Shown here: in pieces, positions 4,527 through 54,037 of the stretch
Numbering within the stretch: position 1 is the first letter of the stretch
How the letters are laid out: each line of letters starts with the position of its first letter
Origin: Candidatus Poribacteria bacterium
Lineage (GTDB): Bacteria > Poribacteria > WGA-4E > JAJDTR01
Direction of reading: 5' to 3'
Assembly: GCA_028820655.1 (NCBI GenBank)
Contig: JAPPIK010000021.1
Location: forward strand, 94,113 to 158,112
DNA: 64,000 nt
Made by a program: the position numbers and the translations under genes
The notes under the pieces: generated by a model
Told to the model about the DNA's origin: nothing
The model's input: the letters and a program-made list of their open reading frames with translations, nothing else
Database searches by the model: none

Positions 4527-4815
4527 TCAACTCGAGCGAAGTGTCAATAGAGATTTTGGTGAGTAAGTTCCGCTATAGCGCGGGAAAGCAATACCTTCGC
4601 ACCAAAACGATTGTCATTCATCACCCTTACGCTGCTGTCTTGGTACGGTGTAGCCGTGTGTATCAATGACACTTCCGGGCTCGATAGACCAGTGCGTTTC
4701 GCTCATCAATTCATAGCATAGCATTCTCCGAAATTCAAGTAAAGCAAATCTGATGCCGAGCGTTAAAGTTGCAAGCTATGATACGCCCTGCTCGGAATGG
4801 AGCCTTCCTTTTCCG

Positions 4816-4844
4816 TTGCGTCGATTATTGGTAGTTGCTATAAT
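4816..4844 (+). promoter_or_regulatory. Probable sigma70-type promoter of mtnA
   Basis: TTGCGT (4816-4821), a 17-nt spacer and a perfect TATAAT (4839-4844), 53 nt before the mtnA ATG. It lies in the 371-bp divergent gap (4527-4897) between trmB and mtnA. I see no other feature in that gap. Sequence match only. Confidence 0.6.
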
Positions 4845-4897
4845 CGAGAAAACGACATTGGCTGCGCGAAGAGTCTTGCCGACTGGAGAATAGAGAA

Positions 4898-5938: not shown

Positions 5939-6135
5939 ACCTGTTTGGAAGGAATCCGAGGGATTGATAAGAATATGCACGTTTGCAGTGGATAATATGT
6001 AGTAAAACACATTGTCTATTGTGAAATCCAAAATCCCTTTTCCAATTCCTTGTGGTCAAGTCACTTTTACTGAGTCGCGAAAATGTGGGATAAATTACGC
6101 CGCACTACCACACAAAGACTTTAGCCATTCCCTTC

Positions 6136-6261
6136 ATGGCAACTCCATCAGCCTTGCAAATAGCAAAGATGCTAGGAATCCCTTATCCATTCATCTACAC
6201 GCGCGAAGGCAAGTGGTTCGGCAGAGTCAATCCTAAGAATGAACATGACGGGTCCGACTGA
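6136..6261 (+). CDS. Possible 41-residue small ORF in the mtnA-repeat protein gap
   Basis: The gap 5939-6401 holds no convincing long gene. This ATG frame encodes a 41-residue peptide of ordinary amino-acid composition (MATPSALQIAKMLGIPYPF..., ending VNPKNEHDGSD). It looks more protein-like than the overlapping 74-codon frame at 6012-6236. The first part resembles one helix-turn-helix unit, and the frame stays open upstream to a TAA at 6091, so it may be a remnant of a regulator. No strong ribosome-binding site. Weak call. Confidence 0.25.
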   Translation: MATPSALQIAKMLGIPYPFIYTREGKWFGRVNPKNEHDGSD

Positions 6262-6401
6262 CGACCTGTGAAGTTTACGCGGAGGAGGAGCGAAAAAGTA
6301 ATGGGCACACTGTCGTTCTGCCACGCCGCATGTCTAAAGATTGACCGACTACCGTCTACACCCGCACCGATAGTACAACTATACTCTACTTGGAGGATAA
6401 A

Positions 6402-7139
6402 GTGAAAACAAAAGAAAGATTCTTCTACATGGTCTGCGGCGCCGTCTTTGGTGTCACTATTCTTCTCATCGGGATGGCAGTTTCACCCACAACCGCACAG
6501 CGAGACACATTCGGTGAGATAATTTGTACGGGTCTAACGGTTGTAGATCGAGAAGGGAATAAGCGGGTGCGGTTAGAGATTGACAAGAACGATGGAGTTA
6601 TCGGTACATGGAACAGACACGGGAAGATTGTCGCACTGATGGGGGGCAGGGAACATGGTGGTGTGATCGGTATCAGGAATAGAGACGGGGAGTATATCGC
6701 TCGAATGTTCTCTAACAATGGCATCGGAACGATTCAAGTTTCAGATCTGAGGGTTACGGATAAGGTTCCCTACGGGACCGAGTGGGTGCGGTTGTGGGCT
6801 GCCGACAACGGTGGCCATGTAGCAGTCTATGGCAAAAACGCGGACATAGCCGCTGCCTACATGACCGCTCGTTTAGAAGGCGGTGGGATAATCTGGGTTA
6901 CGGACCAAGACGGGGATGCTGTTGCCACTTTGACCTCCTACGAGCGCGGCGGGTTAATACGGGTTCGGGGCAAAGACGGTGGAGATCGCGCCGACATGAA
7001 AGCCGGTAAATACGGCGGTTTGGTTAACGTGTATAGCAACCACGGTGAAGGTCGCTCTACTATGGGAGTCAACCAGTCTGGCCACGGTGCGGTCGCTACT
7101 TGGGACAAACACGGCGAAAAACATGGTGATTTGAAGTAA
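6402..7139 (+). CDS. Membrane-anchored glycine-rich repeat protein (beta-solenoid-like), unknown function
   Basis: 245 aa. I chose GTG 6402 because GGAGG at 6392-6396 sits 5 nt before it; the TTG at 6390 would overlap that site. Residues about 8-28 form one hydrophobic segment (FYMVCGAVFGVTILLIGMAV), a signal anchor or signal peptide. The rest is a run of imperfect repeats of about 20-25 residues of the form GG-x-I-x-V-x-(N/D)-x-x-G-x-x-x-A-x-M, for example GGVIGIRNRDGEYIARM, GGGIIWVTDQDGDAVATL and GGLIRVRGKDGGDRADM. Such short-period beta-strand/turn repeats suggest a solenoid outside the cytoplasm. I recognise no enzyme motif. Confidence 0.7.
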   Translation: MKTKERFFYMVCGAVFGVTILLIGMAVSPTTAQRDTFGEIICTGLTVVDREGNKRVRLEIDKNDGVIGTWNRHGKIVALMGGREHGGVIGIRNRDGEYIARMFSNNGIGTIQVSDLRVTDKVPYGTEWVRLWAADNGGHVAVYGKNADIAAAYMTARLEGGGIIWVTDQDGDAVATLTSYERGGLIRVRGKDGGDRADMKAGKYGGLVNVYSNHGEGRSTMGVNQSGHGAVATWDKHGEKHGDLK

Positions 7140-7256
7140 ATACGCAGTCTCCCCGAGTCTCTGCAGAATAAACCCCCAAATTGCATTTTATGCGATTATC
7201 GGGGCGGCCAAGTATCAGATTCGCCGCTCTCAAGAATAGTAAGAATCAAACGACGT

Positions 7257-7280
7257 GAGTTCTATCGCACTATCTATTCA
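7257..7280 (+). repeat. Copy of the dispersed CTATCGCAC intergenic motif
   Basis: Reads GTTCTATCGCACTATCTATT at its core. The same CTATCGCAC core recurs near 9147, 37263, 37491, 39535 (variant CTATCGCGG), 58193, 63466 (variant CTATCGCAT) and 63498, always between genes. Confidence 0.5.
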
Positions 7281-7320
7281 GCTTCTATCACTGCGATTTC
7301 GTTCTTGCGTTTATCTTCAT

Positions 7321-7668
7321 TCATTTACTACCAAATGCGCCAGCAGCGTTCAATGCCCCGACAATTCCGATAAAAAAACCAACTGCTAAGCCAGCAACAA
7401 ACCCCGTATAACTGTCAGTCGTAGTAACACTGCACACAACGCCTAGAACAATGCCCATTAGTGGCCCTGCTATCAGCCAAGTCCTTACGTTCTCGTTTTC
7501 AATACTCCAGAGAATGCCGACATACGTCCCTAATGCTGCGCCCAACACAGCAATATCAAAAAAAGGATCGTAGACCCATAAGCAAATAACAAGCCCAACC
7601 ATCGCGCCCCCCACTACACAAACCAAGATTTTGAGTAAAACCCTGAGAATCACTTTGAGCAAATCCAC
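7321..7668 (-). CDS. Small glycine-rich integral membrane protein
   Basis: 115 aa from GTG 7668. That start has GGGAGG 7 nt upstream, while the TTG at 7686 lies before this site. The protein has about four hydrophobic segments with small-residue packing motifs (VVGGAMVGLVICLWVY, VLGAALGTYVGILW, AGPLMGIVLGVVCSV, GFVAGLAVGFFIGIVGALNAAG). I do not recognise a family. The glycine-zipper-like segments suggest a compact helical bundle. It is first in a set of three tiny minus-strand membrane genes (7321-8194). Confidence 0.6.
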   Translation of the reverse strand: MDLLKVILRVLLKILVCVVGGAMVGLVICLWVYDPFFDIAVLGAALGTYVGILWSIENENVRTWLIAGPLMGIVLGVVCSVTTTDSYTGFVAGLAVGFFIGIVGALNAAGAFGSK

Positions 7669-7815
7669 CCCATGTCCTCCCGTCAATAGTCATTGACAAA
7701 GTAAGTGACCCCGTGAGAAACGTCTAACTCCCGCGTGTGATGCAGCAATTCTAGCGAAGCCTTTGTGTACGCACTTCAATGTCGCCCAGCAGCCCCTCAA
7801 TGTCGTCCAGCCGAC

Positions 7816-7970
7816 TCACTTGGTATCCCCGAGCCGATTTTCAATCGTCATTAACTGCCACCTCATCTGCTCTATCTTCTTGTTGATTGAAAGCAGATAT
7901 ACAAACAGGAAATCCGAACAATCAGCGTGACCAGCACCACCCAAAATACGTGGCAATTCTTCCATTGCAT
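7816..7970 (-). pseudogene. Small membrane/coiled-coil gene apparently split by a frameshift
   Basis: From ATG 7970, frame one encodes a 32-residue peptide with one membrane helix (FWVVLVTLIVRISCLYICF) and stops at 7872. The overlapping frame, open down to 7816, encodes FLFVYLLSINKKIEQMRWQL followed by MTIENRLGDTK, a natural continuation as a short charged coiled coil. Joining the two would give a TM-plus-coiled-coil protein of about 50 residues. It starts 8 nt after the stop of the 7979-8194 gene. Either a real frameshift or a sequencing indel explains it; chance is possible at this size. Confidence 0.4.
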
Positions 7971-7978
7971 TATCTCGT

Positions 7979-8194
7979 TCACTCGCTTTTATTCCTCTTC
8001 CTTGCTGCCAAGAATCGAGACAAATTTCTGCTAGTAAGGAAAATAAAAAAGATGAAAATGAGCACAGCAACCAGTTCGCCGAGTTCCTCGTGGCCATGCC
8101 ACAGTTTCGGCATGCCCTCGACAAATCCTGAAAATGTCACTATAGCCCCCACACAACCGACGACTACCCCGCACAATTGCTTTTTTCCCTTCAA
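7979..8194 (-). CDS. Small two-helix membrane protein
   Basis: 71 aa. TTG start with a strong GGAGG 6 nt upstream (GGAGGTTCAAC-TTG). Two hydrophobic stretches (LCGVVVGCVGAIVTFSGFV and LVAVLIFIFFIFLTS) separated by the short loop GMPKLWHGHEELGE, then a basic tail (RNLSRFLAARKRNKSE). Family not recognised. The clear ribosome-binding site and the helix-loop-helix-basic-tail layout argue that it is expressed. It heads the minus-strand set with the frameshifted gene at 7816-7970. Confidence 0.6.
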   Translation of the reverse strand: MKGKKQLCGVVVGCVGAIVTFSGFVEGMPKLWHGHEELGELVAVLIFIFFIFLTSRNLSRFLAARKRNKSE

Positions 8195-8281
8195 GTTGAA
8201 CCTCCTGTTTTGAAACTGATACCTAATGGGTGCAACTCAAATACCGCTATCTCAAGAACGCGTCATAACCAACCGTTTGCC

Positions 8282-8881
8282 CTAGGTTCGTACAAACTCT
8301 GAAGTGAGAAACCACGCATCCTCGACTGTCAGTTCTGGAATTACCCTGCGTATGTCTTCTTTGTTCATGCGTTGAAACCAGCGTTGATGTCCGCGTAGTC
8401 TTTTAATGCAGTATCTGTCCTCCTCAAGTCGAGGTGTAATCAGTTCCAACATACGACGTTGATTCTCCTTCGTATAACACCATTTTGGCTCATTTAGTAT
8501 TGTCTTCATGTAATACACGGAAAAAAAACATGCAAGTCCTTCTTGTAAATTGGTCACGTTTTGGCTGCCGGTCGGTGCAAGTAGATGAACCGTTTCATGA
8601 GCCATTTCAAAACACGCCTGCGACATGTTTCGAATAGCTGATTGGCTAAGTCTAATGATGATGTTCACACCGTCACGTTCAGGTCTGGACAAATATCTTA
8701 ACTTGGAATCGGCACCATGGAACTCAATACCGACACACCGGTACCAACAATCTCGCCATCCAAACAAATCCTCTGCCAGTTCAAGCATATTAATCAGATG
8801 ACTCCGCAACTGTTGTGCGCATTTACTATCGTTTCCATCCGGGTGATGAACAAACACATCTGAACTGTTAGCCTTTGTCAT
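8282..8881 (-). CDS. Putative HExxH zinc metalloprotein, unknown function
   Basis: 199 aa from ATG 8881 (GGTGGTGG upstream). An ATG at 8956 would add 25 residues of unprotein-like sequence. In the middle I read CFEMAHETVHLLAP followed 15-20 residues later by NLQEGLACFFS. HETVH is an HExxH zinc motif and the glutamate of LQEG is well placed as the third ligand, as in gluzincin peptidases. There is no signal peptide. The C-terminal half is charged and helical. Substrate unknown and no close family recognised. Confidence 0.65.
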   Translation of the reverse strand: MTKANSSDVFVHHPDGNDSKCAQQLRSHLINMLELAEDLFGWRDCWYRCVGIEFHGADSKLRYLSRPERDGVNIIIRLSQSAIRNMSQACFEMAHETVHLLAPTGSQNVTNLQEGLACFFSVYYMKTILNEPKWCYTKENQRRMLELITPRLEEDRYCIKRLRGHQRWFQRMNKEDIRRVIPELTVEDAWFLTSEFVRT

Positions 8882-9095
8882 AATTGTTCTACCACCACCT
8901 TTCGAAATGGTCCATATTGTAGTCTCTATCATACTTACCAGACGGTTTGCACCCATCTAAAGTTGCCTTCGTTATGAGAAAAACACAATCACCCTCATCA
9001 CCTACGATAGAATAATTGACTTGCGGTATTCCATCTATGAAAAAGTCAGCAGCAGTTTCTTGTACCATACGGCCTGTGGTCCCGCTGGCACTCCC

Positions 9096-39347: not shown

Positions 39348-40103
39348 TTCTCCGTGCTCCTTCCACTCTGTTATTGATTTATCCGATTATTCCGTTTGTT
39401 GACACTCTCCGCGACTATTTCTCATATTTTAGCACATACGAGGACATTAGGAGAAGGTATGTTACAGGTTTGTGCCGGGAGAACGCATCGGAATTCCGGA
39501 CGTGACACAAGGGAAAATTGTCTGAATGGGATCTCTATCGCGGTCACTATTCGTTCCCTTGATCGGATTAAACGGATTACGCGGATTACACGGATGGGAA
39601 TCGTACAATCGGTGACGTACGCATAAGGCGCGAAACTTCACGGAAGAACCCCATGAGGGAAGAGAGCAGATCGGCAATTTGGTGATTGAGAATGTCTTTA
39701 GAAAAGCGATAATGGTAACTGAATAGTTGGGTTTCACTGTGTTCAACCCAACCTGCGCACAGTGCACGGTTGAGGAGCTTTTTTGTGGCTAATTTTCAAG
39801 TTCTTCAAATCGTTGATTGAATGTGTTATACTAAATGTATGTTTTCGAATTCTCATTGACACAAGGGAAATCGAACGTTGTTTTCGTTCCAGTTCGGATA
39901 CACGTTTGGTAGTTGCTGTCCTTCTCCGCTAAATCACCGTAAAGAGCAGAAGTCGTCAATTTGCACTTATAATTTCCATATTGGGAATATTTTGTAGGGA
40001 AAAACGATCGTTATTCCCTACACATCACCAATATGCTCTTTCTAACCGATGGACTTGGGAATCTACAGTCTATCTTAAAGAATCCAACATTAGGAATCAT
40101 ACC
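39348..40103. other. Intergenic region with a CTATCGC motif and a CGGATTA microrepeat
   Basis: 756 bp without a convincing gene. Bases 39530-39555 contain GGATCTCTATCGCGGTCACT, a member of the dispersed motif. Bases 39563-39597 hold four successive CGGATTA-type units of about 9-10 bp. A possible -10 (TATACT, 39831-39836) lies before the Mrr-like gene, but I could not place its -35. Confidence 0.5.
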
Positions 40104-41057
40104 ATGCGAACCGTGATGAGAAAAGCATTCGACGAAACTACCGGACAAGAATACGAGATTGAGATTCCATCAACAGAGGATGTACGGGATGCTCTACTCA
40201 AATATGATTATCCACCCGATGGCGTTAGAATTAAGGATGTCGCGCATGCATTAGCCACTCACTATGGATTGGATGAAAGACTGATAGGAGCCAAAAACAA
40301 ACACAAGCAGTTTGTTTTTTCGAAGCATGTACTCATACAAATTCATGCTCTGGTGAAATCAGGGAAGTTGGCGAAGCTAGAAACCGGTCTAGTTGTTCGG
40401 GCGGAAGAGACCAGCGAGGGTGTAAAAGGAGGCAACGAAACATTGGGTGCCCGTGAAATAGTATTGCCCTCCGGTGATAATGCAGGAAATGGTGCATGCA
40501 CTGGCAGTATCAGTCCGACCGCCGAAGAATCTATTGAAAGAGATTACCGGCAAATCCGCTGTGAATTGGCAGAAGAACTACTGCAACATATTAGAGAAAA
40601 CAGTCCGCGTTTTTTCGAGGAACTTGTGTTAGATCTTCTAGTTAAGATGGAATATGGTGGTTCACGGGAAGATGCCGCCAAAGCCGTTGGACGTAGTAGG
40701 GATGGCGGTATTGACGGCATCATTAAGGAGGATAGGCTCGGCCTTGATGCCATTTACGTTCAGGCCAAGCGGTGGGACGCTAATGTTAGCCGCCCTGAAC
40801 TTCAAAAATTCGCGGGTGCACTTCAGGGACAACGAGCGAGAAAAGGAATATTCATTACAACATCAGGTTTTTCGAGAGACGCTCGTGAATTTGTAAACAA
40901 CATTGACTCGAAGATTGTACTCATTGATGGCCGTCAACTTGCTAAACTCATGATTGACTACAATGTCGGGGTTTCTACCGTAACGACCTACGAAATCAAG
41001 CGCGTGGATTCAGATTATTTCATTGAAACCGATGACTCACAAACGCAGGATTCTTAA
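40104..41057 (+). CDS. Mrr-like restriction endonuclease
   Basis: 317 aa from ATG 40104 (TAGGA upstream). The open frame extends to 39981, but that part is not protein-like. An N-terminal winged-helix Mrr_N-type region ([20 protein letters not shown]) precedes a PD-(D/E)xK nuclease: [33 protein letters not shown] with the catalytic aspartate, and AIYVQAKRW (QxK), then [16 protein letters not shown]. Such enzymes cut DNA, often modified DNA (type IV). The hsdM ATG begins 11 bp after its stop, so the two form one transcript. Confidence 0.9.
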
Positions 41058-41068: not shown

Positions 41069-42622
41069 ATGAACACAAACCTAAACGAACTTGAAAGACG
41101 CCTATGGGACGCCGCCGATGAATTGAGAGCCAACTCAAAACTCAAGTCATCCGAATACTCCATTCCCGTGTTGGGCTTGATATTCCTGCGGTACGCAGAC
41201 TTTAAATTCACGCAGGCGGAGGATGAGCTTGCGAGCGAGCCTAGAAGCAGCAGACGAAGAAAAATAGAAAAGGCGGACTATCAAGCGCGCGGCGTCTTTT
41301 TTCTGCCGGAGGAGGCAAGATTCGGACACTTACTGAATCTGTCCGAAGATGAGAACATCGGTCAAGCCATCACCGACGCCATGAAAGCCATCGAGGCGGA
41401 GAACCCGCAGGTGAACGGCGTGCTTCCCAAGACCTACAACCGCCTCGAAAAAAGCACCCTGATCGAACTGCTGCGCATCATGGACCAGATTCCGATGGAG
41501 ATCGAGGGCGACGCTTTCGGCAAAATCTACGAGTATTTCCTCGGCAACTTCGCCATGACCGAAGGGCAGCGCGGCGGCGAGTTCTTCACGCCGACCTCGC
41601 TCGTCAAACTGATCGTCGAAATCATCGAACCCTTCCAAGGGCGCATCCTCGACCCCGCCTGCGGCTCCGGGGGTATGTTCGTGCAGAGCGCAGAGTTTAT
41701 CCACAGCCACAAAAAGAACGGAAACGGTCAAATCAGCATCCACGGAATCGAGCGCGTAGCGGAGACCATCAGGCTGTGCAAGATGAACCTCGCCGTTCAC
41801 GGACTCGAAGGCGACATCCGGCAAGCCAACAGCTACTACGAAGACCCGCACAAGTTGCTGGGGGTATTCGATTTCGTGATGGCGAATCCTCCCTTCAACG
41901 TGGATCGTGTGGACAGGGAACGCATCAAGGATGACCCGCGCTTCCCGTTCGGGATGCCGCGCGTGGACAACGCAAACTACTTGTGGATCCAACTGTTCTA
42001 CAGCTCGCTCTCCGAGTTTGGACGCGCCGGATTCGTCATGGCGAACTCCGCCTCGGATGCAAGAGGTTCTGAACTAGAGATACGCAAAGGGATTATCCAG
42101 TCCCGCGCCGTTGACGTGATGGTGGGTATCGCGTCGAACTTCTTTTACACCGTCACGCTGCCGTGTATGCTCTGGTTCTTCGACAAGTCGAAACGGGGCA
42201 GCGAGCGCCAGGACAAGGTGTTGTTTATCGATGCTCGCGGCCATTACCAACAACTGACCCGCGCGCACCGGGGTTTTACGCCGCAGCATATCGAGTTCTT
42301 CGCAAACATCGCGCGGCTTTACCGCGGCGACCCACCGGAAAACCAGCATGACAGCGCGGAGTTGTTGGCGGTACACTTCCCAGACGGAGAATTCGTAGAT
42401 GTACCGGGTTTGTGTAAATCGGTAACCATCGACGAGATTGAGGCGAACGGGTGGACGCTCAATCCGGGACGCTATGTGGGGGTCGCCGACCGGGAAGCGG
42501 AGGAGTTCGACTTTTCGGACCGGCTGGGTGCGCTCAACGAGGAGTTGGAGGTGCTGACAAGCGAGGCGCGGCAATTGGAGGAACAGATCGCCGAAAACGT
42601 GGGGATGATTCTGGACCGGTAG
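41069..42622 (+). CDS. hsdM: Type I restriction-modification DNA methyltransferase subunit M
   Basis: 517 aa. Methylates adenine N6 at the site chosen by HsdS. The N-terminal four-helix HsdM domain ([20 protein letters not shown]) is followed by motif I ([19 protein letters not shown]) and motif IV ([12 protein letters not shown]). A C-terminal coiled coil ([20 protein letters not shown]) would contact HsdS. Unusually, hsdS lies 3 kb away, beyond two SDR genes and an HTH gene. Strong codon bias here yields long antisense frames, which I regard as shadows. Confidence 0.95.
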
Positions 42623-42893: not shown

Positions 42894-43058
42894 AAGGAAT
42901 ATCGCTCGCATGTTGGGTAACATGGGAGAAATTGCCATCGGTTGTAGAATAATGGGAGCGCCTTGTATTCGCCGCAAGGAGACAATGGACTAAACGATTA
43001 CGAGGAACTTTTATGAGACTGGATGAACATATCCACAAACGGTAAGAGGAAGCATTTC

Positions 43059-43832
43059 ATGGTACTCAAAGATCGAATCGGCATAGTGACCGGCGGGAGT
43101 TCAGGCGTCGGAAGGGGAATCGCGCTCGAGTTTGCTCGCGAGGGCGCCCGTGTCGTCATCGCCGACAAGCAGGAGGCGCCGCTCCGGGGGAAATATCACG
43201 AGACGGATGTCACCACGCCGACCGTGGAAGAGATTGAAAAACTCGGCGTAGAGGCGATTTTCGTCCGGACGGATGTCACGGATGAATCTCAGATTGAACG
43301 GTTGATTGAGCAAAGCGTCCAGCACTTCGGTGGATTGGACATCCTCGTCAACAACGCCGGCATCCATATCCCCGGCGGGGCGCAGGACATTTCGATTGCG
43401 CAGTGGGACCAAGTCGTGGGAACGAACCTTCGCGGCGTGTTCGTTGCGACGAAACTCGCCATTCCCCATCTGAAGGGTTCCAAATATGGACGAATCATCC
43501 AAATTGCCTCCGTTCACGCTTACGGCGGCGGCGCGGGACCTGCGTACGCCCCGGCGAAAGCCGGCGTCGTCAACATGGTTCGGGATACGGCGATGGAGGT
43601 CGGGGAATTCGGGATAACCGTCAACGCCATCTGCCCCGGCTACATAGAGACATCGCTTCAGGACTACCTCACGCAGGAGATGATCGATGCCGTCGCCGAA
43701 AAGACTGCGCTACCCCGATTCGGCAAACCGAGGGACGTCGGGCGAGCCGCGGTGTTCCTCGCCTCCGACGACGCCGAATGGATCACCGGCGCCTCCCTCC
43801 TCGTTGACGGCGGCTTAATCACGGGAACTTAG
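43059..43832 (+). CDS. Short-chain dehydrogenase/reductase (SDR)
   Basis: 257 aa from ATG 43059, with AGGAAG 8 nt upstream; the frame start at 43023 precedes this site. Classical SDR motifs: TGGSSGVGRGIA (NAD(P) binding, residues about 10-21), NNAGIH, and the catalytic YAPAKAG (YxxxK). GITVNAICPGYIETSL is the usual late block. It oxidises or reduces a hydroxyl/keto group; the substrate is unknown. It sits inside the type I R-M locus, next to a second SDR 77 bp downstream. Confidence 0.92.
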   Translation: MVLKDRIGIVTGGSSGVGRGIALEFAREGARVVIADKQEAPLRGKYHETDVTTPTVEEIEKLGVEAIFVRTDVTDESQIERLIEQSVQHFGGLDILVNNAGIHIPGGAQDISIAQWDQVVGTNLRGVFVATKLAIPHLKGSKYGRIIQIASVHAYGGGAGPAYAPAKAGVVNMVRDTAMEVGEFGITVNAICPGYIETSLQDYLTQEMIDAVAEKTALPRFGKPRDVGRAAVFLASDDAEWITGASLLVDGGLITGT

Positions 43833-43856
43833 AATCAACGCATTGGACTTGTCCTT

Positions 43857-43884
43857 GTAGGGGACGCAGATCTGCGTCCCCTAC
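43857..43884. repeat. 28-bp perfect palindrome GTAGGGGACGCAGA...
   Basis: The 14-bp arm GTAGGGGACGCAGA is followed by its exact reverse complement. The identical 28 bp occurs at 59910-59937. Confidence 0.9.
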
Positions 43885-43909
43885 TGATTTCATTCGGGAG
43901 GGAAAACGA

Positions 43910-44707
43910 ATGCTTAACAATCCTTGGGGCACGGTTCGATTCACGGACAAGGTTGCGCTGATCACAGGCGGCGCCTCCGGCATCGGACGCGCCACCGCAA
44001 ACCGTTTGGCGGCTGAAGGCGCACACGTCATCATCGCGGACAACAACGCTCCGTTAGCGAATCGAGCCGTCTCCCAAATCGAGGCAGACGGCGGAAAAGC
44101 CAGCCATATCGAAGTCGATCTGGCGGACGACGAATCCGTCTGCGCCTGCGGCCGGGAGGTGGCTGAACGCTTTCCCGCGCTCCACATGCTCGTAAACAAC
44201 GCCGCCATACTCCGACAGGGCAGGATTGAAGACGGCTCATGGAAGGAGAATTGGGATGCGGAGACAGCCGTCGGTTTGCGAGGTTGGGCGCTCATCACTC
44301 AAGAACTGTTGCCGACGCTAAAGAAGGGGGGCGGCGCCATCGTCAACATCTCATCGGAGGCCGGATTTCTCGGCAGACCCAACGGATGGGTCTACGACGC
44401 CATTAAAGCCGCTTTGGTCTCCCTCACGAAAACCATGGCGCAGGAGTTTGTCGGCTACGGGATTCGCGTCAACGCGGTGGCGCCCGGTTGGATTGTCACC
44501 GAGATGCACTTCGGCAGGGCGCCCGACCCCGCCGCGCGAAAAAAAGAACTGGAAGATACGCCGTACGAAGGCTGTATCATGAAACGCCGAGCGGCGCCGG
44601 AGGAGGTAGCGTCCGCCATCGCCTTCCTGCTGAGCAACGACGCCTCCTACATTGCGGGGCAGACCATTCATGTAGACGGGGGACGTATGGGGATGTCGTT
44701 GCGGTGA
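43910..44707 (+). CDS. Short-chain dehydrogenase/reductase (SDR), second copy
   Basis: 265 aa, GGGAGG before the ATG. Motifs: ITGGASGIGRATANRL, NNAAIL, catalytic YDAIKAAL (YxxxK), and GIRVNAVAPGWIVTEM. It shares the fold but not close sequence with the first SDR, so an old duplication or two imports are possible. Together they form a two-gene unit separating hsdM from hsdS. Substrate unknown. Confidence 0.92.
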   Translation: MLNNPWGTVRFTDKVALITGGASGIGRATANRLAAEGAHVIIADNNAPLANRAVSQIEADGGKASHIEVDLADDESVCACGREVAERFPALHMLVNNAAILRQGRIEDGSWKENWDAETAVGLRGWALITQELLPTLKKGGGAIVNISSEAGFLGRPNGWVYDAIKAALVSLTKTMAQEFVGYGIRVNAVAPGWIVTEMHFGRAPDPAARKKELEDTPYEGCIMKRRAAPEEVASAIAFLLSNDASYIAGQTIHVDGGRMGMSLR

Positions 44708-45386: not shown

Positions 45387-45635
45387 CACGGATATTTTTG
45401 GCTGTGTAGGTGACGCATCTCTCCGTGGCATTTGGAAAAGTGAATTTCCTCCTTTGCCAACTCTCCGCCTTCTTTGGAGAAAAAGATCTGTGAGAAAACG
45501 CTTGTGCGGAGCACGAATTCTAGCGAATTCAAGACGGCATGATTGAGTATTTCACTGCATGGGTTGTCTTTTATAACTCCTTAATCCACAAGCGACGACT
45601 GAGAGACATGGTGCTGATTTCTTGGGAAATGTGTG

Positions 45636-47141
45636 ATGGAACGTCATAAGAAAAATTGGATAGTCAAAACATTAGATGAGGTATGTCAGTTCCAGAATGG
45701 ATTTTCCTTCAAAAACAAGGACTATCGGAATGAATCTGTTGACGGTTATGTCGTGTTTCGCATGGGGAACATCAATCGTGGGGGAGGATTGAAAAGGGAT
45801 ACGTCAACCGTCCGCATTAGTAAGGACCAATCAACGAAACTTAAGCGCTACATTCTCAACAAAAACGATATTGTAATGTGTATGACCGATATGAAGTCAA
45901 GCATGGATCTCTTGGGACATACCGCTGTGGTTGACAGGGACAATTACTACGTTTTAAATCAGCGAGTTGGTAGAATAACGGTGAGTAGAGAGGATGTGCT
46001 CCATTATCGTTATCTTTTCTATTATACGAACAGTGAAACATATCTTCTGCACTTGCGACGTATGGCGCACAGTGGAGTTCAGGTCAATTTGTCAACTAAG
46101 GCAATTAAAGAATCCCCAATCTTTCTTCCTCCGCTCCCAACTCAACGCAAAATCGCCTCAATCCTCGGCAACTACGACGACCTCATTGAAAACAACACCC
46201 GCCGCATCAAAATCCTTGAGGAGATGGCGGCTACCATCTACCGCGAATGGTTTGTCGAATTCCGATTTCCCGAGCATGAGAATGTGAAGATGGTGGAGTC
46301 GGAGTTGGGGTTGATTCCGCAGGGGTGGGAGGTAAAGTGTTTTGGCGACGTTTCTTTAAACTTCGATCGTCTGCGGAAGCCACTATCAGGACAGGTTAGA
46401 TCGACGATGCAAGGCGAATATCCATATTACGGCGCTGCTAGCATATTGGACCATGTCAACGATTACTTGTTTGATGGCAGGTATTTACTGATTGGAGAAG
46501 ATGGTAGTGTTATTACTAAGGATGGAAGACCTGTATTACAGCTAGTAGCTGGAAAATTTTGGGCAAATAATCATACTCATGTCGTTCAAGGTAAGTCCCC
46601 AATTTCGACGAATTTTCTTTACCTGCTCATGTCCAACGTAACGATTTCGAGTTACGTTACAGGCACCGCACAGCCAAAGATTAACCAAGAGAATCTGAAT
46701 AGGATTCCGGTGGTTTCACCTCCACGAAGTCTACTAGAAAGATTCGACCAAATAGTAAACCCTATTTACGATGACATTGTTATTTTGGATCGCAAGAATA
46801 TAAACCTCCGCAATACCCGCGACATGTTGCTGCCCAAACTCATCTCTGGCGAGATTGACGTATCTGGGTTTGTTATAAACGTTGACGGAATACAACCGAG
46901 AATGGGCGGAACGCACATCCCGCATCCATTGACACAGTGGCTGCACAGTGACGAGAAAATCCTCTCTGGGAAGCCCGTGATTAAGGGAACACGCTTAGCT
47001 GTCGAGTTCATCATCGAATTGTTGGAAAATCATTGGAGTGAAGAAGACATACGTGGAAATTATCCTAACATTACACGCGAAGATATTGACGCATGTCGTG
47101 CTTATCAACGGAAGGTACTGGATGCGCCTGTTAGCGGATGA
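45636..47141 (+). CDS. hsdS: Type I R-M specificity subunit HsdS fused to a C-terminal DUF433 domain
   Basis: 501 aa from ATG 45636 (GTG 45633 also in frame). Two target-recognition domains are separated by the conserved helical region PLPTQRKIASILGNYDDLIE and end with LRNTRDMLLPKLISGEIDVS, the usual HsdS terminus. The frame then continues without a stop into about 75 residues: HPLTQWLHSDEKILSGKPVI, then KGTRLAVEFIIELLENHWSE and YPNITREDIDACRAYQRK. These are the DUF433 (antitoxin) features. An internal ATG at 46902 could make the DUF433 part alone. It overlaps the DUF5615 gene by 20 bp. Confidence 0.9.
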   Translation: MERHKKNWIVKTLDEVCQFQNGFSFKNKDYRNESVDGYVVFRMGNINRGGGLKRDTSTVRISKDQSTKLKRYILNKNDIVMCMTDMKSSMDLLGHTAVVDRDNYYVLNQRVGRITVSREDVLHYRYLFYYTNSETYLLHLRRMAHSGVQVNLSTKAIKESPIFLPPLPTQRKIASILGNYDDLIENNTRRIKILEEMAATIYREWFVEFRFPEHENVKMVESELGLIPQGWEVKCFGDVSLNFDRLRKPLSGQVRSTMQGEYPYYGAASILDHVNDYLFDGRYLLIGEDGSVITKDGRPVLQLVAGKFWANNHTHVVQGKSPISTNFLYLLMSNVTISSYVTGTAQPKINQENLNRIPVVSPPRSLLERFDQIVNPIYDDIVILDRKNINLRNTRDMLLPKLISGEIDVSGFVINVDGIQPRMGGTHIPHPLTQWLHSDEKILSGKPVIKGTRLAVEFIIELLENHWSEEDIRGNYPNITREDIDACRAYQRKVLDAPVSG

Positions 47142-47484
47142 AAACTTTCCTCGCGTTACGGTGAGACTACTTCGTTCATGCGGACATGACCTTATGTGGA
47201 TACACGAGATAACACCCGGTATCAACGATGTATTGGTATTGGCGCGCGCCACGACCGAGAAGCGTACCCTTATCACATTCGACAAGGATTTTGGCGACTT
47301 GGTCTTCCGTCAAAAATTTAAAGCACCAGCGGGGATAATTTTGGTTCGCATTTCATCAACCCCGACATCGGTTGTCAGCCGAATAGCAGTAACTGCATTG
47401 GACAGTCGGATTGATTGGACAGGACATTTCTGGGTTGTTCGCGGCGAAAATGACATTAGGATGAGGTGCCTGCCAAATTCATGA
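47122..47484 (+). CDS. DUF5615 family PIN-like toxin
   Basis: 120 aa from ATG 47122, within the end of hsdS-DUF433, with AAGG 6 nt upstream. The N-terminus MRLLADENFPRVTVRLLRS carries the first acidic site, TLITFDKDFGDLVFR the second, and FWVVRGENDIRMR ends it. DUF5615 proteins are PIN-domain-like nucleases that pair with DUF433 antitoxins, and here the only DUF433 directly upstream is on HsdS. The 20-bp overlap implies coupled translation. Confidence 0.88.
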   Translation: MRLLADENFPRVTVRLLRSCGHDLMWIHEITPGINDVLVLARATTEKRTLITFDKDFGDLVFRQKFKAPAGIILVRISSTPTSVVSRIAVTALDSRIDWTGHFWVVRGENDIRMRCLPNS

Positions 47485-47673: not shown

Positions 47674-48870
47674 ATGGCGGACGCGAGCGCATTCCTAGAA
47701 AAGGTCCATATCAGAAACTACCTAAGCCTGCAGGATGTAGAACTTCCACTTAAGCCTTTGACCGTGCTCGTCGGGCCCAATGCAAGTGGGAAATCCAATG
47801 TTTTGAAAGCTTTGCGCCTTCTCAAGACGATGATGACCCGTGAAGAACTGCCCTCAGATGAATTCGTCCGAGATTCCCTTTGGGCAGGTGAAGCAAGCCA
47901 AATTACCTTCCAATTACGAGCTGAGGTGAAAGAAATCCAAGCTGTATACGGATTGGACCTAAAGGCAGAAACTGACAATCTTAATGTTACGGAGGGATTG
48001 TCCGTTGACGGTGTCGAAGTTATATCGATTCAAAGCGGTGAAGGCGTCGTTACGGATGAAGACGGCAAAAACGGAACCAATTACAAGTCCAAGAAACTCG
48101 CTCTGAAGTCTGCCGGGGACTATGGAAACTAGCCCATTACCAGTGCCTTAACCGCGTTCATCAAGACGTGGGAGTTTTATGACTTTCAACCAGACTTGAT
48201 ACGAGGCAATCTCTCAGGATTTCCGTTTGTTATAGTAGAGAATGTTTTATCGGACAAATCCAAGGCCTCACGCGAATCTCCTAAGCTGGACGATGATGGT
48301 TCAAGATTATCGGAAGTACTGGCATACTGGCACGAGAACCACAGGGGGCGTTTCGACAGAATTAGCGAATCCCTCGAAACTTCCACCGGCTTAAAAATCC
48401 AATCACGCCCGATTGACGGCGATAACAAACTCTGTCTTTTGGAAGGGTACAAGAAGCCGATACCTCTGAAGCGAGCGTCTGATGGTACATTGCGTCTAGT
48501 TGCATATTACATCTTGCTTAATGAACCTGAATTGCCGCCCCTCATTGCCATTGAAGAACCCGAGCGAAATCTGCACCCCGGTGCTCTGGCGGAGATTACA
48601 AACGCCCTTGAGCAACTTGCCGAACGCACCCAAGTCATAATCACAACTCACAGTTCCCAACTCCTGGATGCATTTAATCCTCAGAACCTGTCAAACTCGC
48701 CCGGCGTTTTGTTGTTACGCAACCCTCTTGGGCACGGCACAGAAGTCACCAACCTTGAGGACATTCGCGGCAAACGAGAAGCACTGGATGGTTGGATTAC
48801 CGATTTCGGAATCGGAAGTGCGATTTTCCATAGTCAGCTCTTACCTGGCCCAGTTGAGGAATCTGAATGA
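47674..48870 (+). pseudogene. AAA family ATPase (OLD/SMC-like) interrupted by an in-frame TAG
   Basis: Residues 1-152 start FLEKVHIRNYLSLQDVELPL with the Walker A motif VGPNASGKSNVLKAL. A TAG at 48130-48132 ends the frame. The same frame then continues directly as PITSALTAFIKTWEFYDFQP and on to the ABC-type signature region (LKRASDGTLRLVAYYILL), Walker B (LIAIEEPERNLHPGAL) and the switch histidine (ITTHSSQLLDAF). One nonsense change therefore splits an otherwise intact ATPase of about 398 aa. TAG ends normal genes here (for example hsdM), so it is a stop. A TTG at 48196 could restart the C-terminal part. Confidence 0.85.
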
Positions 48871-49580
48871 CGACCATAAGAATCTGGGCTGTGGAATCGG
48901 ACTACGATGCCAAAGCCGTTGAGCGTTTGGCAACCAAGTTGGCTGAGCATCTACAACTCCGCAATTTATCGATCCAAGTATCCGGCAAGCAGGCTTTGGC
49001 GCACCGCCAGTTGGATAAGGCGACACGCAACTACCTCAAAGAAGCGGCCTGCGTCATTTTTGTCATTGACCAAGACAGCCCGATGTTTCTCCATCAACGT
49101 CGACAGCAGCCGAATTCTCTAATCAATCAGGTTGAACAGCTTGTCAACGACAGTAGTCTTGATGGTCGAGTATTTCTGGTGTTCGCTATCCAGGAACTTG
49201 AGGCGTGGCTACTGATTGATTGTCTTGGAATATTCTGTTATTTCGCTAGCCAACGAGGACGGTATAGGAATAATTGCCGAGATCGTGTTTCCGAAAATAA
49301 GGACTTTGCACGAATGATTGACAGCGAGCAGAAAGGCGACACCGAAAAGATTGTAGAGCCGGAAAGTGGTGGCAAGGGGGCCAAAGAATACTTGGAAAGA
49401 TTCTCCGAACGGATTCTGCTCAAACTCAATCCGAACAGGCGGCGCAAAAACGTCGAGAACGAACGGTATCGTGAGGCCATGTCACCCATGATGGCAGAGC
49501 ATGTTGTTATTGATAGAGAAACGCTAAAGTGGAACAATTCCCTCAGATATTTCGGAGAAGTGCTTGCCCATTTCAAGTAA
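48867..49580 (+). CDS. DUF4276-like protein, TOPRIM-type partner of the AAA ATPase
   Basis: 237 aa; its ATG overlaps the ATPase stop (ATGA), so translation is coupled. An early acidic VESDYDAKAVERLATKL, then VIFVIDQDSPMF (D-x-D) and FLVFAIQELEAWLLIDCLG, match DUF4276, a TOPRIM-like fold often encoded next to AAA ATPases in defence loci. ATPase-TOPRIM pairs, such as PARIS (AriA/AriB) or OLD systems, sense phage factors and cut RNA or DNA. This pair may be a relative, but with the ATPase broken it may be inactive. Confidence 0.78.
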   Translation: MTTIRIWAVESDYDAKAVERLATKLAEHLQLRNLSIQVSGKQALAHRQLDKATRNYLKEAACVIFVIDQDSPMFLHQRRQQPNSLINQVEQLVNDSSLDGRVFLVFAIQELEAWLLIDCLGIFCYFASQRGRYRNNCRDRVSENKDFARMIDSEQKGDTEKIVEPESGGKGAKEYLERFSERILLKLNPNRRRKNVENERYREAMSPMMAEHVVIDRETLKWNNSLRYFGEVLAHFK

Positions 49581-49621: not shown

Positions 49622-49879
49622 ATGAGTACGACCAAAATATCCGAACCGATAACCCTTGAAAAACTGATGCCGCTAATCCAAAGATTATCTCAAGACGAGC
49701 GTGAACAACTGCGTCAACTTCTCGAAAGGGACTCGACAACCGGAAGGAAAAAGCGAGGAAATGTCATTCTTCATTCTCGCGATGCCGGTGCGGGTATGCC
49801 CGATGAGGAAGCGCTCAGCGAATTTAACGCCATACTAGCAGAAATAAGAAGTCGGAAAAGCGAGGATCCCAAGGAGTAA
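49622..49879 (+). CDS. Small antitoxin-like hypothetical protein
   Basis: 85 aa. A helical N-terminus (LEKLMPLIQRLSQDEREQLR), a short basic middle (TTGRKKRGNVILHSRDAG) and a second charged helix (EEALSEFNAILAEIRSRKSE). The length and composition resemble small antitoxins, but no DNA-binding motif is certain. Its stop lies 3 bp before the tandem DUF433 gene and carries AAGGAG for it, so the two form a pair. Confidence 0.6.
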   Translation: MSTTKISEPITLEKLMPLIQRLSQDEREQLRQLLERDSTTGRKKRGNVILHSRDAGAGMPDEEALSEFNAILAEIRSRKSEDPKE

Positions 49880-49882
49880 GGA

Positions 49883-50632
49883 ATGGAACTTACAGACATT
49901 TTTGAATTCATCAGTCCAAACGCGATCCGCATCAAGGGAACGCGCAGTGACATTGAGTTTGTGATTGAGGAATTCCTCTACGGCTCAAACCCAAGGAGAA
50001 TCCGGCGGCGCTACCCGCATCTGACGCCGCTTCAAATTTACGGCTCGATAACCTACTATCTACTCAACCGAGAGAAAATGGATGCCTACATTGAAGCCGG
50101 TCGCGCCGCGGTTACAGCCGTTATTGAGAAGCATCGTAGAGATCGATCGGCCTCCTCGTCGTCTGGTGGCAGTTCGCAACTCCCGAAATCCTCCACCGGC
50201 GGAAGAGAGAAGGCGGTCATTCGGGAGTCTGCTCCCGAGATGGCGCAGGTTGACACCGGGGGAAACGCCGGGACAAAAACGAAAAGCCTGCACATTCGGG
50301 ATATCTTTGAGTTTATCAGCCCGGAGGCGATCCGCATCAAGGGCACGCGCGTTGGCATTGAGATCGTGATTGAGAGATTTCTTGATGACGAAAGCCCGGA
50401 TGAAATTCGGAGGCACCATCCGCTCCTGACGCCGCTACAAATATATGGCTCGATAACTTACTATCTGCTAAACAAGGAGGTGCTTGACGCCTACTTGAAG
50501 GCTGGATGGGAGGGTGCGGAAGCCGCGTATCAGGAACAGCTTAAAAATCCGTCTCCCGGTGTAGTGCGGCTCACTAAGATTGCGGAGGAAGCCAGAGCCG
50601 CTCGGTTGAGGCTGCGCGAACTGTCGTACTAG
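49883..50632 (+). CDS. Protein with two DUF433 domains in tandem
   Basis: 249 aa with AAGGAG directly upstream. Residues about 5-65 and 140-200 repeat the same block: DIFEFISP(N/E)AIRIKGTR, then IE(F/I)VIE, then LTPLQIYGSITYYLLN. This is the DUF433 pattern, with a serine-rich linker between. The DNA of the two halves is also similar, so an internal duplication is likely. DUF433 proteins usually act as antitoxins to DUF5615 toxins; the only DUF5615 gene here (47122) already has DUF433 on HsdS. Lies 226 bp before hsdR. Confidence 0.8.
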   Translation: MELTDIFEFISPNAIRIKGTRSDIEFVIEEFLYGSNPRRIRRRYPHLTPLQIYGSITYYLLNREKMDAYIEAGRAAVTAVIEKHRRDRSASSSSGGSSQLPKSSTGGREKAVIRESAPEMAQVDTGGNAGTKTKSLHIRDIFEFISPEAIRIKGTRVGIEIVIERFLDDESPDEIRRHHPLLTPLQIYGSITYYLLNKEVLDAYLKAGWEGAEAAYQEQLKNPSPGVVRLTKIAEEARAARLRLRELSY

Positions 50633-50857: not shown

Positions 50858-53800
50858 ATGCAAAATCCCTACAGCGAAGACCAACTTGTTGAACAACCCG
50901 CCATTGGCCTGCTCGCAGAACTCGGCTGGGAGAGGCTGGACTGTTTCGACGAATTTTCGCAGGCCGGCGGGAGCCCGCTCGGTAGGGAGACAAAATCGGA
51001 AGTCGTGCTGACATCGCGCCTGCGTCCCGCTTTGCGGCGGTTCAACCCCGGTGCCTCCGACGCCGCGGTTGACGCGGCAATCGAGGAGCTTACCCGCCCC
51101 CGCTCCGCCATGAGCCCCGCCACCGCCAATCGGGAGATTTACGAACTCCTGAAAGACGGCGTGAGGGTGACGGTAAGCGATCCGGATGGCGAAGAGGAAC
51201 TCGTCGAAGTCCTGCGCGTCATTGATTGGAGCTCCCCGTCAAACAACGATTTCTTCGCCGCATCTCAAATGTGGATTTCCGGCGAAACCTACCAGCGGCG
51301 GCCCGACCTCATCGGCTTTGTCAACGGGGTACCCCTGCTGCTGATGGAGTTCAAACGGATTGACGAACCCGTCTGCTCCGCCTACCACGACAATCTCCGC
51401 GACTACAAAGACACCATTCCCCACCTGTTCTGGTACAATGCTCTGATTATCGTTTCCAACGGCTCCGAGAGCAAATTCGGCGGGGTCACCGCCAGTTGGG
51501 AGCACTTCGCCGAGTGGAAACGCATCAGTTCCGAGGAGGAACAGGGAGCCAGTTCGTTGGAGACCATGCTCAGAGGACTGTGCGACCATGAACGGATGCT
51601 GGACCTCATCGAAAACTTCACGCTCTTCATGGAGGTGCAGGGCGGACTGATCAAGCTCATCGCCAAGAATCACCAATACTTGGGCGCGAACAACGCCATC
51701 CGAGCCTTGCGGGAGATTGAATCGAACCGGGGAAAGCTGGGTGTGTTCTGGCATACGCAGGGCTCCGGGAAAAGCGTGTCGATGATTTTCTTCGCTCAAA
51801 AGGTGTTGAGAAAGATACCGGGAAACTGGAGTTTTGTGCTCGTGACCGACCGCGTCGAGTTGGACAAGCAACTCTACAAAAACTTCGCGGATTCCAGCGG
51901 GGTTGTCATCGGGCAGGAGGTTCATGCGGAAAGTGTGGTACATCTCCGGCAACTCCTGGGGGAAGACCACCGATACATTTTCACGCTTATCCACAAGTTT
52001 CAGACAAGAGACGGTGAAAACCACCCTGTGCTCTCGGATCGCTCCGACATCATCGTCATCACGGACGAATCGCACCGAAGTCAGTACGACACCTTGGCGC
52101 TGAACATGCGTACGGCGCTGCCCAACGCGGCGTTCATCGCCTTCACCGGCACGCCGCTCATCGCCGGGGAGGAGAGAACGCGGCAGGTGTTCGGCGATTA
52201 TGTCTCGATTTACGACTTCAAGCAGTCGGTCGAGGATGGCGCGACGGTGCCGCTTTTCTACGAGAACCGCGTCCCGAAACTCCAACTTACCAACGACGAA
52301 CTCAACCGGGAATTAGAGGGCATTCTTGAGGACGCCGAACTCGACGATGCGCAGGAATCGAAGATCGAGGGTGAGTTTTCCAGAGAGTATCACCTCATCA
52401 CGCGGGAGGACCGCTTGGACGCCATCGCAGAAGACATCGTCGCTCACTTCATGGGGCGCGGCTATCGGGGAAAGGCGATGGTCATCTCCATCGACAAAGC
52501 CACCACTGTCAAGATGTACGACAAGGTGGGTGCGCATTGGAAAGCGTACATCGCAGGCCTCCGAGCGGAATGGGAGGACGCGGCGTCTCCCGATACCCGC
52601 GATCCGATTGCCGCCAAGATTCGCTACATGAAAGAGACGGACATGGCGGTTGTGGTATCTCAATCTCAGAACGAGATTGACGACCTTAAACGGCGGGATG
52701 TTGACATCGTGCCGCACAGAAGGCGTATGGTTACCGAGGATTTGGATACCAAGTTCAAAGATCCGGACGACCCGTTCCGGATCGTGTTCGTGTGCTCCAT
52801 GTGGAGCACGGGTTTTGACGTTCCGTCGTGTTCGACCATCTATCTCGACAAGCCGCAGCGCAACCACACGCTGATGCAGACAATAGCACGGGCGAATCGG
52901 GTTTTTCGCGAAAAGGTCAACGGCTTGATAGTGGATTATATCGGCGTGTTCCGCGACCTTGAAAAGGCGTTGGCAACCTACACCGGAAACGGTGATACTA
53001 ACGGAGAAAACCCTATTGTAGAAAAATCGAAGTTGGTCGAGATGTTGCGAGAAGCACTTGTGGAGATCAACGCATTTTGTCTGGGAATAGGTGTGGATCT
53101 CTTTCCAATTAACGAAGCGGAGGCGTTTGAGAGAGCCGAGTCAATTGACGATGCGGTAGACAAGATAGTAGCCAACGACGCTACGAAACGGGAATATCTC
53201 CAACTTGCCGGGAATGTCACCAAATTGTATAAAGCCATCCTGCCGGATTCGAGTGCGGGTGACTTCGCCGCAACCTGTTCGCTCGTGGATATCATCGGGA
53301 AGAAGATAAGAAAACTCGCCGCAACGGCTGACATCTCCGAGGTGATGGGGGAGGTGGAAGCCCTGCTCGATCGCTCGGTTGCGCCCGAGGGTTATGTCAT
53401 TGAAGAAACCGAACACGAGTGGGAAACCGACGAGACCATCGATTTGAGCGAGATTGACTTTGAGGCGCTGCGGGAGCGGTTCAACACGAGACGGAAAGGG
53501 ATCGAAGCGGAGAAACTCAGGGTGGCGGTAAAGAGGAAGCTGACGCAACTGGTTCAGGTCAACCGCACCCGGATGGACTTTCAGGAGAAATTCGAGGAGA
53601 TGATAGCGGAGTACAACGATGGCAAAATCAACGTCGATCTGCATTTCGAGGAGTTGATTAGGCTGGTAGAAACGCTTAACGAAGAGGAGCAACGCGCGGT
53701 TAGCGAGCATCTCAGCGAAGAGCAACTGACCCTTTTTGACCACTTGACGCGGTCCGAAGAGAACCTCACCGAGGCGGAACGAGATCAGGTGAAAGACATA

Positions 53801-54037
53801 TCGCGCACGTTGCTGGATACCCTAAATCGTGAAAAGTTGGTATTGGACTGGCGCAAGAAGCAACAGTCGCGCGCCGATGTCAAACTGACTATCAAAAAAG
53901 TCCTTGACGCATTGCCGGAATGTTACTCGGAAGAACTCTACGAACAGAAATGCGATGTCGTATATCAGCACATCTATGAATCCTATTACGGTGACGGCAA
54001 CAGTGTGTATACGATCGGCGAATCTCGTTTGATTTAA
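50858..54037 (+). CDS. hsdR: Type I restriction endonuclease subunit R
   Basis: 1059 aa. It cleaves DNA after ATP-driven translocation with HsdM and HsdS. The N-terminus EDQLVEQPAIGLLAELGWE is typical. The nuclease core has RRPDLIGFVNGVPLLLMEFK (D...ExK). The helicase motor follows: Walker A HTQGSGKSVSM, DESHRSQ (motif II) and FTGTPLIAGEERT (motif III region), later QTIARANRVFREK (motif VI). The C-terminal region with coiled coils is present to residue 1059. It appears intact although its partner genes are scattered over 13 kb. Confidence 0.96.
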   Translation: MQNPYSEDQLVEQPAIGLLAELGWERLDCFDEFSQAGGSPLGRETKSEVVLTSRLRPALRRFNPGASDAAVDAAIEELTRPRSAMSPATANREIYELLKDGVRVTVSDPDGEEELVEVLRVIDWSSPSNNDFFAASQMWISGETYQRRPDLIGFVNGVPLLLMEFKRIDEPVCSAYHDNLRDYKDTIPHLFWYNALIIVSNGSESKFGGVTASWEHFAEWKRISSEEEQGASSLETMLRGLCDHERMLDLIENFTLFMEVQGGLIKLIAKNHQYLGANNAIRALREIESNRGKLGVFWHTQGSGKSVSMIFFAQKVLRKIPGNWSFVLVTDRVELDKQLYKNFADSSGVVIGQEVHAESVVHLRQLLGEDHRYIFTLIHKFQTRDGENHPVLSDRSDIIVITDESHRSQYDTLALNMRTALPNAAFIAFTGTPLIAGEERTRQVFGDYVSIYDFKQSVEDGATVPLFYENRVPKLQLTNDELNRELEGILEDAELDDAQESKIEGEFSREYHLITREDRLDAIAEDIVAHFMGRGYRGKAMVISIDKATTVKMYDKVGAHWKAYIAGLRAEWEDAASPDTRDPIAAKIRYMKETDMAVVVSQSQNEIDDLKRRDVDIVPHRRRMVTEDLDTKFKDPDDPFRIVFVCSMWSTGFDVPSCSTIYLDKPQRNHTLMQTIARANRVFREKVNGLIVDYIGVFRDLEKALATYTGNGDTNGENPIVEKSKLVEMLREALVEINAFCLGIGVDLFPINEAEAFERAESIDDAVDKIVANDATKREYLQLAGNVTKLYKAILPDSSAGDFAATCSLVDIIGKKIRKLAATADISEVMGEVEALLDRSVAPEGYVIEETEHEWETDETIDLSEIDFEALRERFNTRRKGIEAEKLRVAVKRKLTQLVQVNRTRMDFQEKFEEMIAEYNDGKINVDLHFEELIRLVETLNEEEQRAVSEHLSEEQLTLFDHLTRSEENLTEAERDQVKDISRTLLDTLNREKLVLDWRKKQQSRADVKLTIKKVLDALPECYSEELYEQKCDVVYQHIYESYYGDGNSVYTIGESRLI

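What the first reader, a model, noticed from the sequence alone, without database searches (positions are those of the whole stretch)
47674..49580. AAA ATPase-DUF4276 pair with a single in-frame amber codon
Seen directly: one TAG at 48130-48132 splits a frame that has Walker A on one side and Walker B plus H-switch on the other. The DUF4276 gene overlaps the ATPase end (ATGA). The promoter-like site at 47595 supports separate expression. Inference: a phage-defence pair of the ATPase-TOPRIM type, recently inactivated or read through, or expressed as two parts with restart at TTG 48196.
Basis: partly seen in the sequence, partly recalled or inferred. Interest (0 to 1): 0.65.

Follow-up and report, generated by a model that had tools for sequence, protein, structure and literature searches.

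The report
Broken defence ATPase inside restriction operon
In a sponge-type Poribacteria genome, a two-gene antiviral module (a sensor-like ATPase and a nuclease-like partner) sits inside a DNA-restriction operon, and its ATPase is cut by one stop codon that none of 52 full-length relatives has, so it is most likely a recently disabled copy of a known kind of defence system rather than a new way of reading the code.

Summary
An ABC-type ATPase frame (47674-48870) has one TAG at 48130-48132, with Walker A before it and Walker B and the H-switch after it. A DUF4276-like gene (48867-49580) overlaps its end. All 52 full-length homologues read through; 45 have Lys there. Both sides of the TAG remain fully conserved. 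No tRNA-CUA or PylS was found, TAG ends about a quarter of the window's genes, and the proposed TTG restart has no ribosome-binding site. It is therefore a very recent nonsense allele or an assembly error, not programmed recoding and not a standing split gene. The proposed promoter is unsupported.

The pair is a divergent HEC-01-like ATPase/Toprim-like module between hsdS and hsdR of a type I restriction operon, an arrangement repeated in at least 12 relatives. The full-length partner keeps an invariant E/DxD triad (25/25) and elsewhere always has an intact ATPase beside it (17/17). Intact ATPases have lost the partner at least six times. In 17 of 53 ATPase loci the partner is instead a degenerate Toprim-like domain carrying an antitoxin-like tail, usually followed by a PIN toxin gene. 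Likely mechanism when intact: PARIS-like abortive infection. In this allele the pair is probably off.

The parts
47674..48870 (+). HEC-01-like ABC ATPase frame (398 codons), interrupted once
   Evidence: homologues of 380-425 aa all open
48130..48132 (+). in-frame TAG, at a loop between the two ATPase lobes in the model; Lys in 45 of 52 homologues
48196..48870 (+). C-terminal ORF from TTG (proposed restart); no Shine-Dalgarno; judged not a separate gene
48867..49580 (+). intact full-length DUF4276-like (Toprim-like) partner, ATGA overlap with the ATPase stop, own GAGGA ribosome-binding site
39981..41057 (+). Mrr-type restriction endonuclease gene upstream of hsdM
41069..42622 (+). hsdM, type I methyltransferase subunit
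45633..47141 (+). hsdS fused at its C-terminus to a DUF433 domain
   Evidence: same fusion in L068
47038..47484 (+). DUF5615 (PIN-like) gene overlapping the DUF433 end
49622..49879 (+). small 85-aa ORF conserved between the pair and hsdR in relatives
49883..50632 (+). double DUF433 protein
50858..54037 (+). hsdR, type I restriction subunit, intact

Best explanation
The window carries a divergent HEC-01-like defence pair embedded between hsdS and hsdR of a type I restriction-modification operon. When intact, the Rad50/OLD-like ABC ATPase is most likely the sensor and keeper, and the DUF4276 protein a Toprim-like metal nuclease that it holds and activates on infection, so that the pair backs up the restriction enzyme by abortive infection, as AriA/AriB do (inferred from anatomy, not shown). 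Here a single recent nonsense change separates the ATP-binding lobe from the signature/Walker B lobe. No complete ATPase is made and the pair is switched off. The intact partner is probably tolerated because it needs the ATPase for activation, because its expression is reduced by the untranslated stretch before it, or because the change is too young to have been purged.
For: Unique stop: 0 of 52 distinct homologues carry it, Lys in 45. Youth: none of 22 invariant columns before and 54 after the TAG is altered, and dN/dS is about 0.1-0.2 on both sides. TAG is a true stop here: 10 of 39 window genes end in TAG, no CUA anticodon among 42 tRNAs, no PylS. ATPase class: HEC-01A 9e-48 on the read-through frame; fold matches Rad50, PtuA and OLD heads. 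Partner: invariant E10, D68, D70 in 25/25 on an alternating alpha/beta N-terminal half. RM-embedded arrangement repeated in 12 relatives. Full-length partner never lacks an intact ATPase elsewhere, 17/17, whereas the ATPase has lost its partner in 7 loci, at least 6 events.
Against: No reads, so a base-call or strain-mixture error is not excluded. The rarity of full-length partner without ATPase (0/17) itself argues that such an allele would be selected against, which favours an error or an extremely young mutation. Fold search of the partner gave no significant match (best OLD Toprim region, TM 0.39-0.44, E 0.16). No activity data exist for this subfamily.
Confidence: 0.6

Rival explanations
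1. The TAG is a base error or a minority-strain base in a metagenome-assembled contig; the organism's ATPase gene is intact.
For: Perfect conservation on both sides of the TAG; one nucleotide from the usual lysine codon; full-length partner without ATPase is otherwise not seen; the genome is a draft of 61 contigs.
Against: A single isolated substitution with no other damage in the operon is also what a young mutation looks like; no independent evidence of error in the window.
Confidence: 0.27
2. The two halves are translated separately (stop at 48130, restart at TTG 48196) and assemble, as separately expressed Rad50 lobes can.
For: The TAG falls in a loop between the two lobes, where Rad50/SMC heads carry their insertion.
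Against: No Shine-Dalgarno at TTG 48196 and no in-frame ATG or GTG in the remainder; a restart there loses the helix at residues 154-164; no homologue is split there.
Confidence: 0.05
3. Programmed or suppressor-mediated read-through of TAG yields full-length ATPase at low level.
For: Both halves still look constrained.
Against: No tRNA-CUA, no PylS, TAG used as ordinary stop; TAG not conserved in any intact homologue. Constraint is equally explained by youth.
Confidence: 0.04
4. Adaptive loss: the ATPase was inactivated by selection because the pair was costly, as part of turnover in which RM-embedded modules are disarmed while the restriction enzyme is kept.
For: hsdM, hsdS and hsdR are intact; the genome holds two further intact, canonical HEC-01 pairs; relatives show repeated disarming of one gene or the other.
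Against: Usual disarming hits the partner, not the ATPase; a single allele cannot show selection.
Confidence: 0.04

Closest known systems
HEC-01 (Hma-embedded candidate 01; PADLOC HEC-01A/HEC-01B)
   Same: AAA/ABC ATPase plus overlapping DUF4276-type gene; ATPase matches HEC-01A at 9e-48. The same genome has two canonical, intact HEC-01 pairs (3e-138/6e-69 and 4e-160/4e-73).
   Different: The window pair is a divergent subfamily: partner only 8.6e-7 to HEC-01B and below Pfam's DUF4276 cut-off; it lies in a type I RM operon; relatives exchange the partner for a degenerate Toprim-like domain with an antitoxin-like tail, usually before a PIN gene.
PARIS (AriA/AriB)
   Same: ABC ATPase sensor with a Toprim nuclease effector that it holds and activates (PMC12409363, PMC11455837); works alongside restriction; AriA models match at 3e-30.
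   Different: HEC-01A models fit better than AriA; the partner matches DUF4276/HEC-01B rather than AriB.
Genes embedded in type I RM loci: TgvAB (VPI-2) and the Campylobacter R-linked orfs (rlo genes)
   Same: Extra defence genes between hsdS and hsdR; TgvAB is a separate two-gene defence embedded in a type I operon, and RloF lies between hsdR and hsdS (PMC11411939). RloA/RloB as ATPase-type embedded genes is from my own knowledge.
   Different: TgvAB is GmrSD-like (DUF262/DUF1524), not ATPase/Toprim.
OLD / Gabija GajA / PtuA (retron, Septu) ATPases
   Same: Same ABC ATPase head; best sequence matches in solved structures are OLD (6p74) and PtuA.
   Different: OLD and GajA carry the Toprim nuclease on the same chain; PtuA partners an HNH protein.

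Membership tests
HEC-01 | HEC-01A-type ATPase | tested here: met
   Both halves and the read-through frame match HEC-01A best (4e-33 for the C-half; 9.3e-48 whole)
HEC-01 | adjacent HEC-01B (DUF4276) gene | tested here: inconclusive
   Best HEC-01B 8.6e-7; Pfam DUF4276 27.6 bits against cut-off 30.2; canonical pairs in the same genome score 6e-69 and 4e-73
HEC-01 | two genes in one operon, ATPase first | tested here: met
   ATGA overlap here; overlap or short gap in nearly all relatives
HEC-01 | anti-phage activity | not testable with these tools
   no experiment possible
PARIS | AriA ATPase as best match | tested here: not met
   HEC-01A 9e-48 beats AriA 3e-30
PARIS | AriB-type Toprim partner | tested here: not met
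   no AriB hit; partner hits DUF4276/HEC-01B only
Toprim nucleases (wider class) | E after strand 1 and DxD after strand 3 in an alternating alpha/beta fold | tested here: met
   E10, D68, D70 invariant 25/25 at the ends of strands 2-7 and 62-69; found by inspection
Toprim nucleases (wider class) | significant fold match to a solved Toprim domain | tested here: inconclusive
   OLD C-terminal region 6nk8, TM 0.39/0.44, E 0.16
UAG recoding / suppression | tRNA with CUA anticodon or PylS | tested here: not met
   42 tRNAs, none CUA; PylS absent; genome about 95% complete
UAG recoding / suppression | UAG conserved at the position in homologues | tested here: not met
   0 of 52

The most novel reading that the evidence does not exclude
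The RM-embedded ATPase is a common sensor that has been re-wired repeatedly between two kinds of effector. One is an active Toprim-like nuclease (full-length DUF4276, metal triad invariant). The other is a catalytically degenerate Toprim-like docking domain with an antitoxin-like tail, behind which a PIN RNase toxin is encoded, so that infection sensing by the ATPase would release a PIN toxin. This would be a direct evolutionary bridge between PARIS-like systems and type II toxin-antitoxin modules inside restriction operons. Basis: 12 homologous PIN-family ORFs (one shortened) right after short partners plus 2 unrelated ORFs after UPF0175-type partners, triad kept in 25/25 long against 3/13 short partners, at least 4 switches between the two types.
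Probability: 0.4. Interest if true: 0.65.

Novelty: new variant of a known kind. Interest (0 to 1): 0.36.

Why it matters
The amber codon itself is ordinary. What may matter is the family around it: a sponge-symbiont lineage that keeps an ATPase/Toprim-like pair inside its type I restriction operon, repeatedly loses the partner but, for the full-length partner, not the ATPase, and swaps the nuclease for a toxin-antitoxin pair. That asymmetry makes two testable predictions: the full-length partner is harmful without the ATPase, and the ATPase can control different effectors through a shared Toprim-like domain.

Tried and rejected
Suppression or recoding: rejected. Restart at TTG 48196: rejected for lack of a ribosome-binding site. 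Old pseudogene: rejected by full conservation on both sides. 'Homologues always split there': rejected. 'ATPase never lost in relatives': I first thought so from searches with the C-terminal half. A search with the N-terminal half found two more damaged copies: G043/L185 (a TAG plus deletions, hsdR decayed too) and G031/L186 (ATPase residues 1-142 fused by deletion to a short partner's tail). An orphan-partner search added G018/L187 with a 31-residue remnant. The asymmetry claim is therefore limited to full-length partners. An apparent orphan long partner in G029 was a contig edge. My first automatic typing of partners mislabelled six rows and was corrected before the final count. Promoter at 47595: not found. 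Partner fold search: nothing significant. No relatives in viral contigs. No paper in the library mentions DUF4276, or HEC-01 together with PADLOC.

Full report
WHAT IS THERE. The frame 47674-48870 is open for 398 codons except for one TAG at 48130-48132. Pfam AAA_15/AAA_21 match both halves. The DUF4276 gene starts inside the ATPase stop (ATGA, 48867) and runs to 49580 with its own GAGGA ribosome-binding site. The claimed promoter at 47595 is not recovered by the scan, whose other hits equal the shuffled expectation.

SURROUNDINGS. The order is mrr (39981), hsdM (41069), two short-chain dehydrogenase-type genes (43023, 43910), an HTH gene (45057), hsdS fused to DUF433 (45633-47141), DUF5615 (47038), ATPase, DUF4276 gene, an 85-aa ORF, a double-DUF433 gene, hsdR (50858-54037). 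The domain assignment of the second dehydrogenase-type gene rests on reading its sequence. In 12 of 47 loci fetched from named genomes the pair is likewise followed by a related hsdR within about 2 kb, often with hsdS upstream. Others have hsdS only (L047, L054, L061) or lie at other sites, for example between argG and argH in Latescibacterota-named MAGs (L039).

WHOSE GENOME. The window lies in G000:C35. The nearest homologues come from MAGs named Candidatus Poribacteria, Latescibacterota and Caldilineaceae, so this is a sponge-type Poribacteria-order genome. The one held genome of the same genus lacks the pair.

IS THE STOP REAL BIOLOGY OF THE FAMILY? No. Fifty-two other distinct homologues (one per unique protein) have an open frame. 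At the TAG column 45 have Lys, 3 Asn, 3 Ser and 1 Ile. TAG is an ordinary terminator here (10 of 39 window genes). PylS is absent. After the TAG there is no in-frame ATG or GTG, and the TTG at 48196 has no Shine-Dalgarno sequence. The frame shows no decay: 0 of 22 invariant columns before and 0 of 54 after the TAG are altered, and dN/dS against the nearest relatives is about 0.1-0.2 on both sides. So the change is either extremely young or an error of the assembly. These tools cannot separate the two without reads.

WHAT THE ATPASE IS. The AlphaFold model (TAG read as Lys; mean pLDDT 81.8) matches Rad50, PtuA and OLD heads. Sequence profiles agree. The TAG sits in a loop between the strand-rich N-lobe and the C-lobe, so the truncated product keeps Walker A and loses Walker B and the H-switch. 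Among defence profiles HEC-01A is best (9e-48), above AriA (3e-30). The same genome has two more, canonical and intact HEC-01 pairs (L002, L003). The window pair is a divergent subfamily.

WHAT THE PARTNER IS. The full-length partner is DUF4276-like below the curated cut-off and HEC-01B-like at 8.6e-7. The model (pLDDT 89.8) has an alternating alpha/beta N-terminal half. E10 and the D68-x-D70 pair, positioned as in Toprim domains, are invariant in 25 of 25 sequences. A short relative hits Toprim_2 weakly. Foldseek gave nothing significant; an OLD Toprim region is among the better TM-scores. 'Toprim-like nuclease' is therefore an inference from motif and context.

NATURAL HISTORY. The seven losses need at least six events; some are in-frame deletions, for example L044 and L051. 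Short partners keep the N-terminal Toprim-like half, often lose the triad (3 of 13 complete), and end in an antitoxin-like tail (UPF0175 in L038). Twelve are followed by a PIN_3-family ORF, one of these shortened to 100 aa (three tested by Pfam, all homologous by alignment). Two others, L038 and L043, are followed by a different 163-aa ORF; the L038 one has no Pfam hit. Searching with the partner showed that every full-length partner elsewhere (17 of 17, plus one at a contig edge) has an intact ATPase beside it. Short partners do occur without an intact ATPase (L185, L187-L189). The window is the only full-length partner beside a broken ATPase.

HOW IT MOST LIKELY WORKS. Shown: gene order, motifs, conservation, the pattern of losses. 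Inferred: the ATPase senses infection or inhibition of the restriction enzyme and holds, then activates, the Toprim-like nuclease. This is modelled on PARIS, where AriA sequesters AriB and triggers include anti-restriction proteins (PMC11455837), and where AriB seems to be activated by AriA, not merely released (PMC12409363). Embedding of a second two-gene defence system in a type I operon is known for TgvAB (PMC11411939). In the window's allele the sensor is cut, so the pair should be off, with restriction itself unaffected.

VERDICT. Observation mostly right; interpretation right about the kind of system and recent inactivation, wrong or unsupported about read-through, restart and promoter. 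The stop is ordinary; the partner exchange in the wider family is the part worth following.

Noticed in passing
45633-47484; L068:3151-4722; L045, L058, L067: hsdS is fused in frame to a DUF433 domain and overlaps a DUF5615 (PIN-like) gene; the same arrangement recurs in several relatives, so a DUF433/DUF5615 toxin-antitoxin-like pair seems joined to the specificity subunit.
   Followed up: partly
L037:6720-7707, L045:6711-7713, L046:6738-7722 and nine more loci: Short partners of the same ATPase are Toprim-like domains with an antitoxin-like tail followed by a PIN_3 toxin gene; the metal triad is mostly lost.
   Followed up: partly
L038:6720-7939, L043:1067-2286: Short partner with a UPF0175-type tail (tested in L038) followed by a different 163-aa ORF without a Pfam hit (starts FVDTDVL, PIN-like).
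   Followed up: partly
L044:6640-6768 and L051 after 6720: In-frame deletions removed the partner's body; in L044 the ATPase now ends in the partner's last residues.
   Followed up: yes
L186 (G031:C30) 2770-3252: ATPase residues 1-142 fused in frame to the tail of a short partner by deletion, inside a type I RM operon.
   Followed up: partly
L185 (G043:C40): A second interrupted ATPase of this family (TAG plus deletions) in a type I operon whose hsdR is also decayed.
   Followed up: partly
L039, L040, L044 around 3900-9030: In Latescibacterota-named MAGs the pair sits between argininosuccinate synthase and argininosuccinate lyase genes, a possible fixed insertion site.
   Followed up: no
43023-44707: Two dehydrogenase-type genes lie between hsdM and hsdS; similar genes occur near the RM operon in several relatives (L037, L048, L067, L185).
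   Followed up: no
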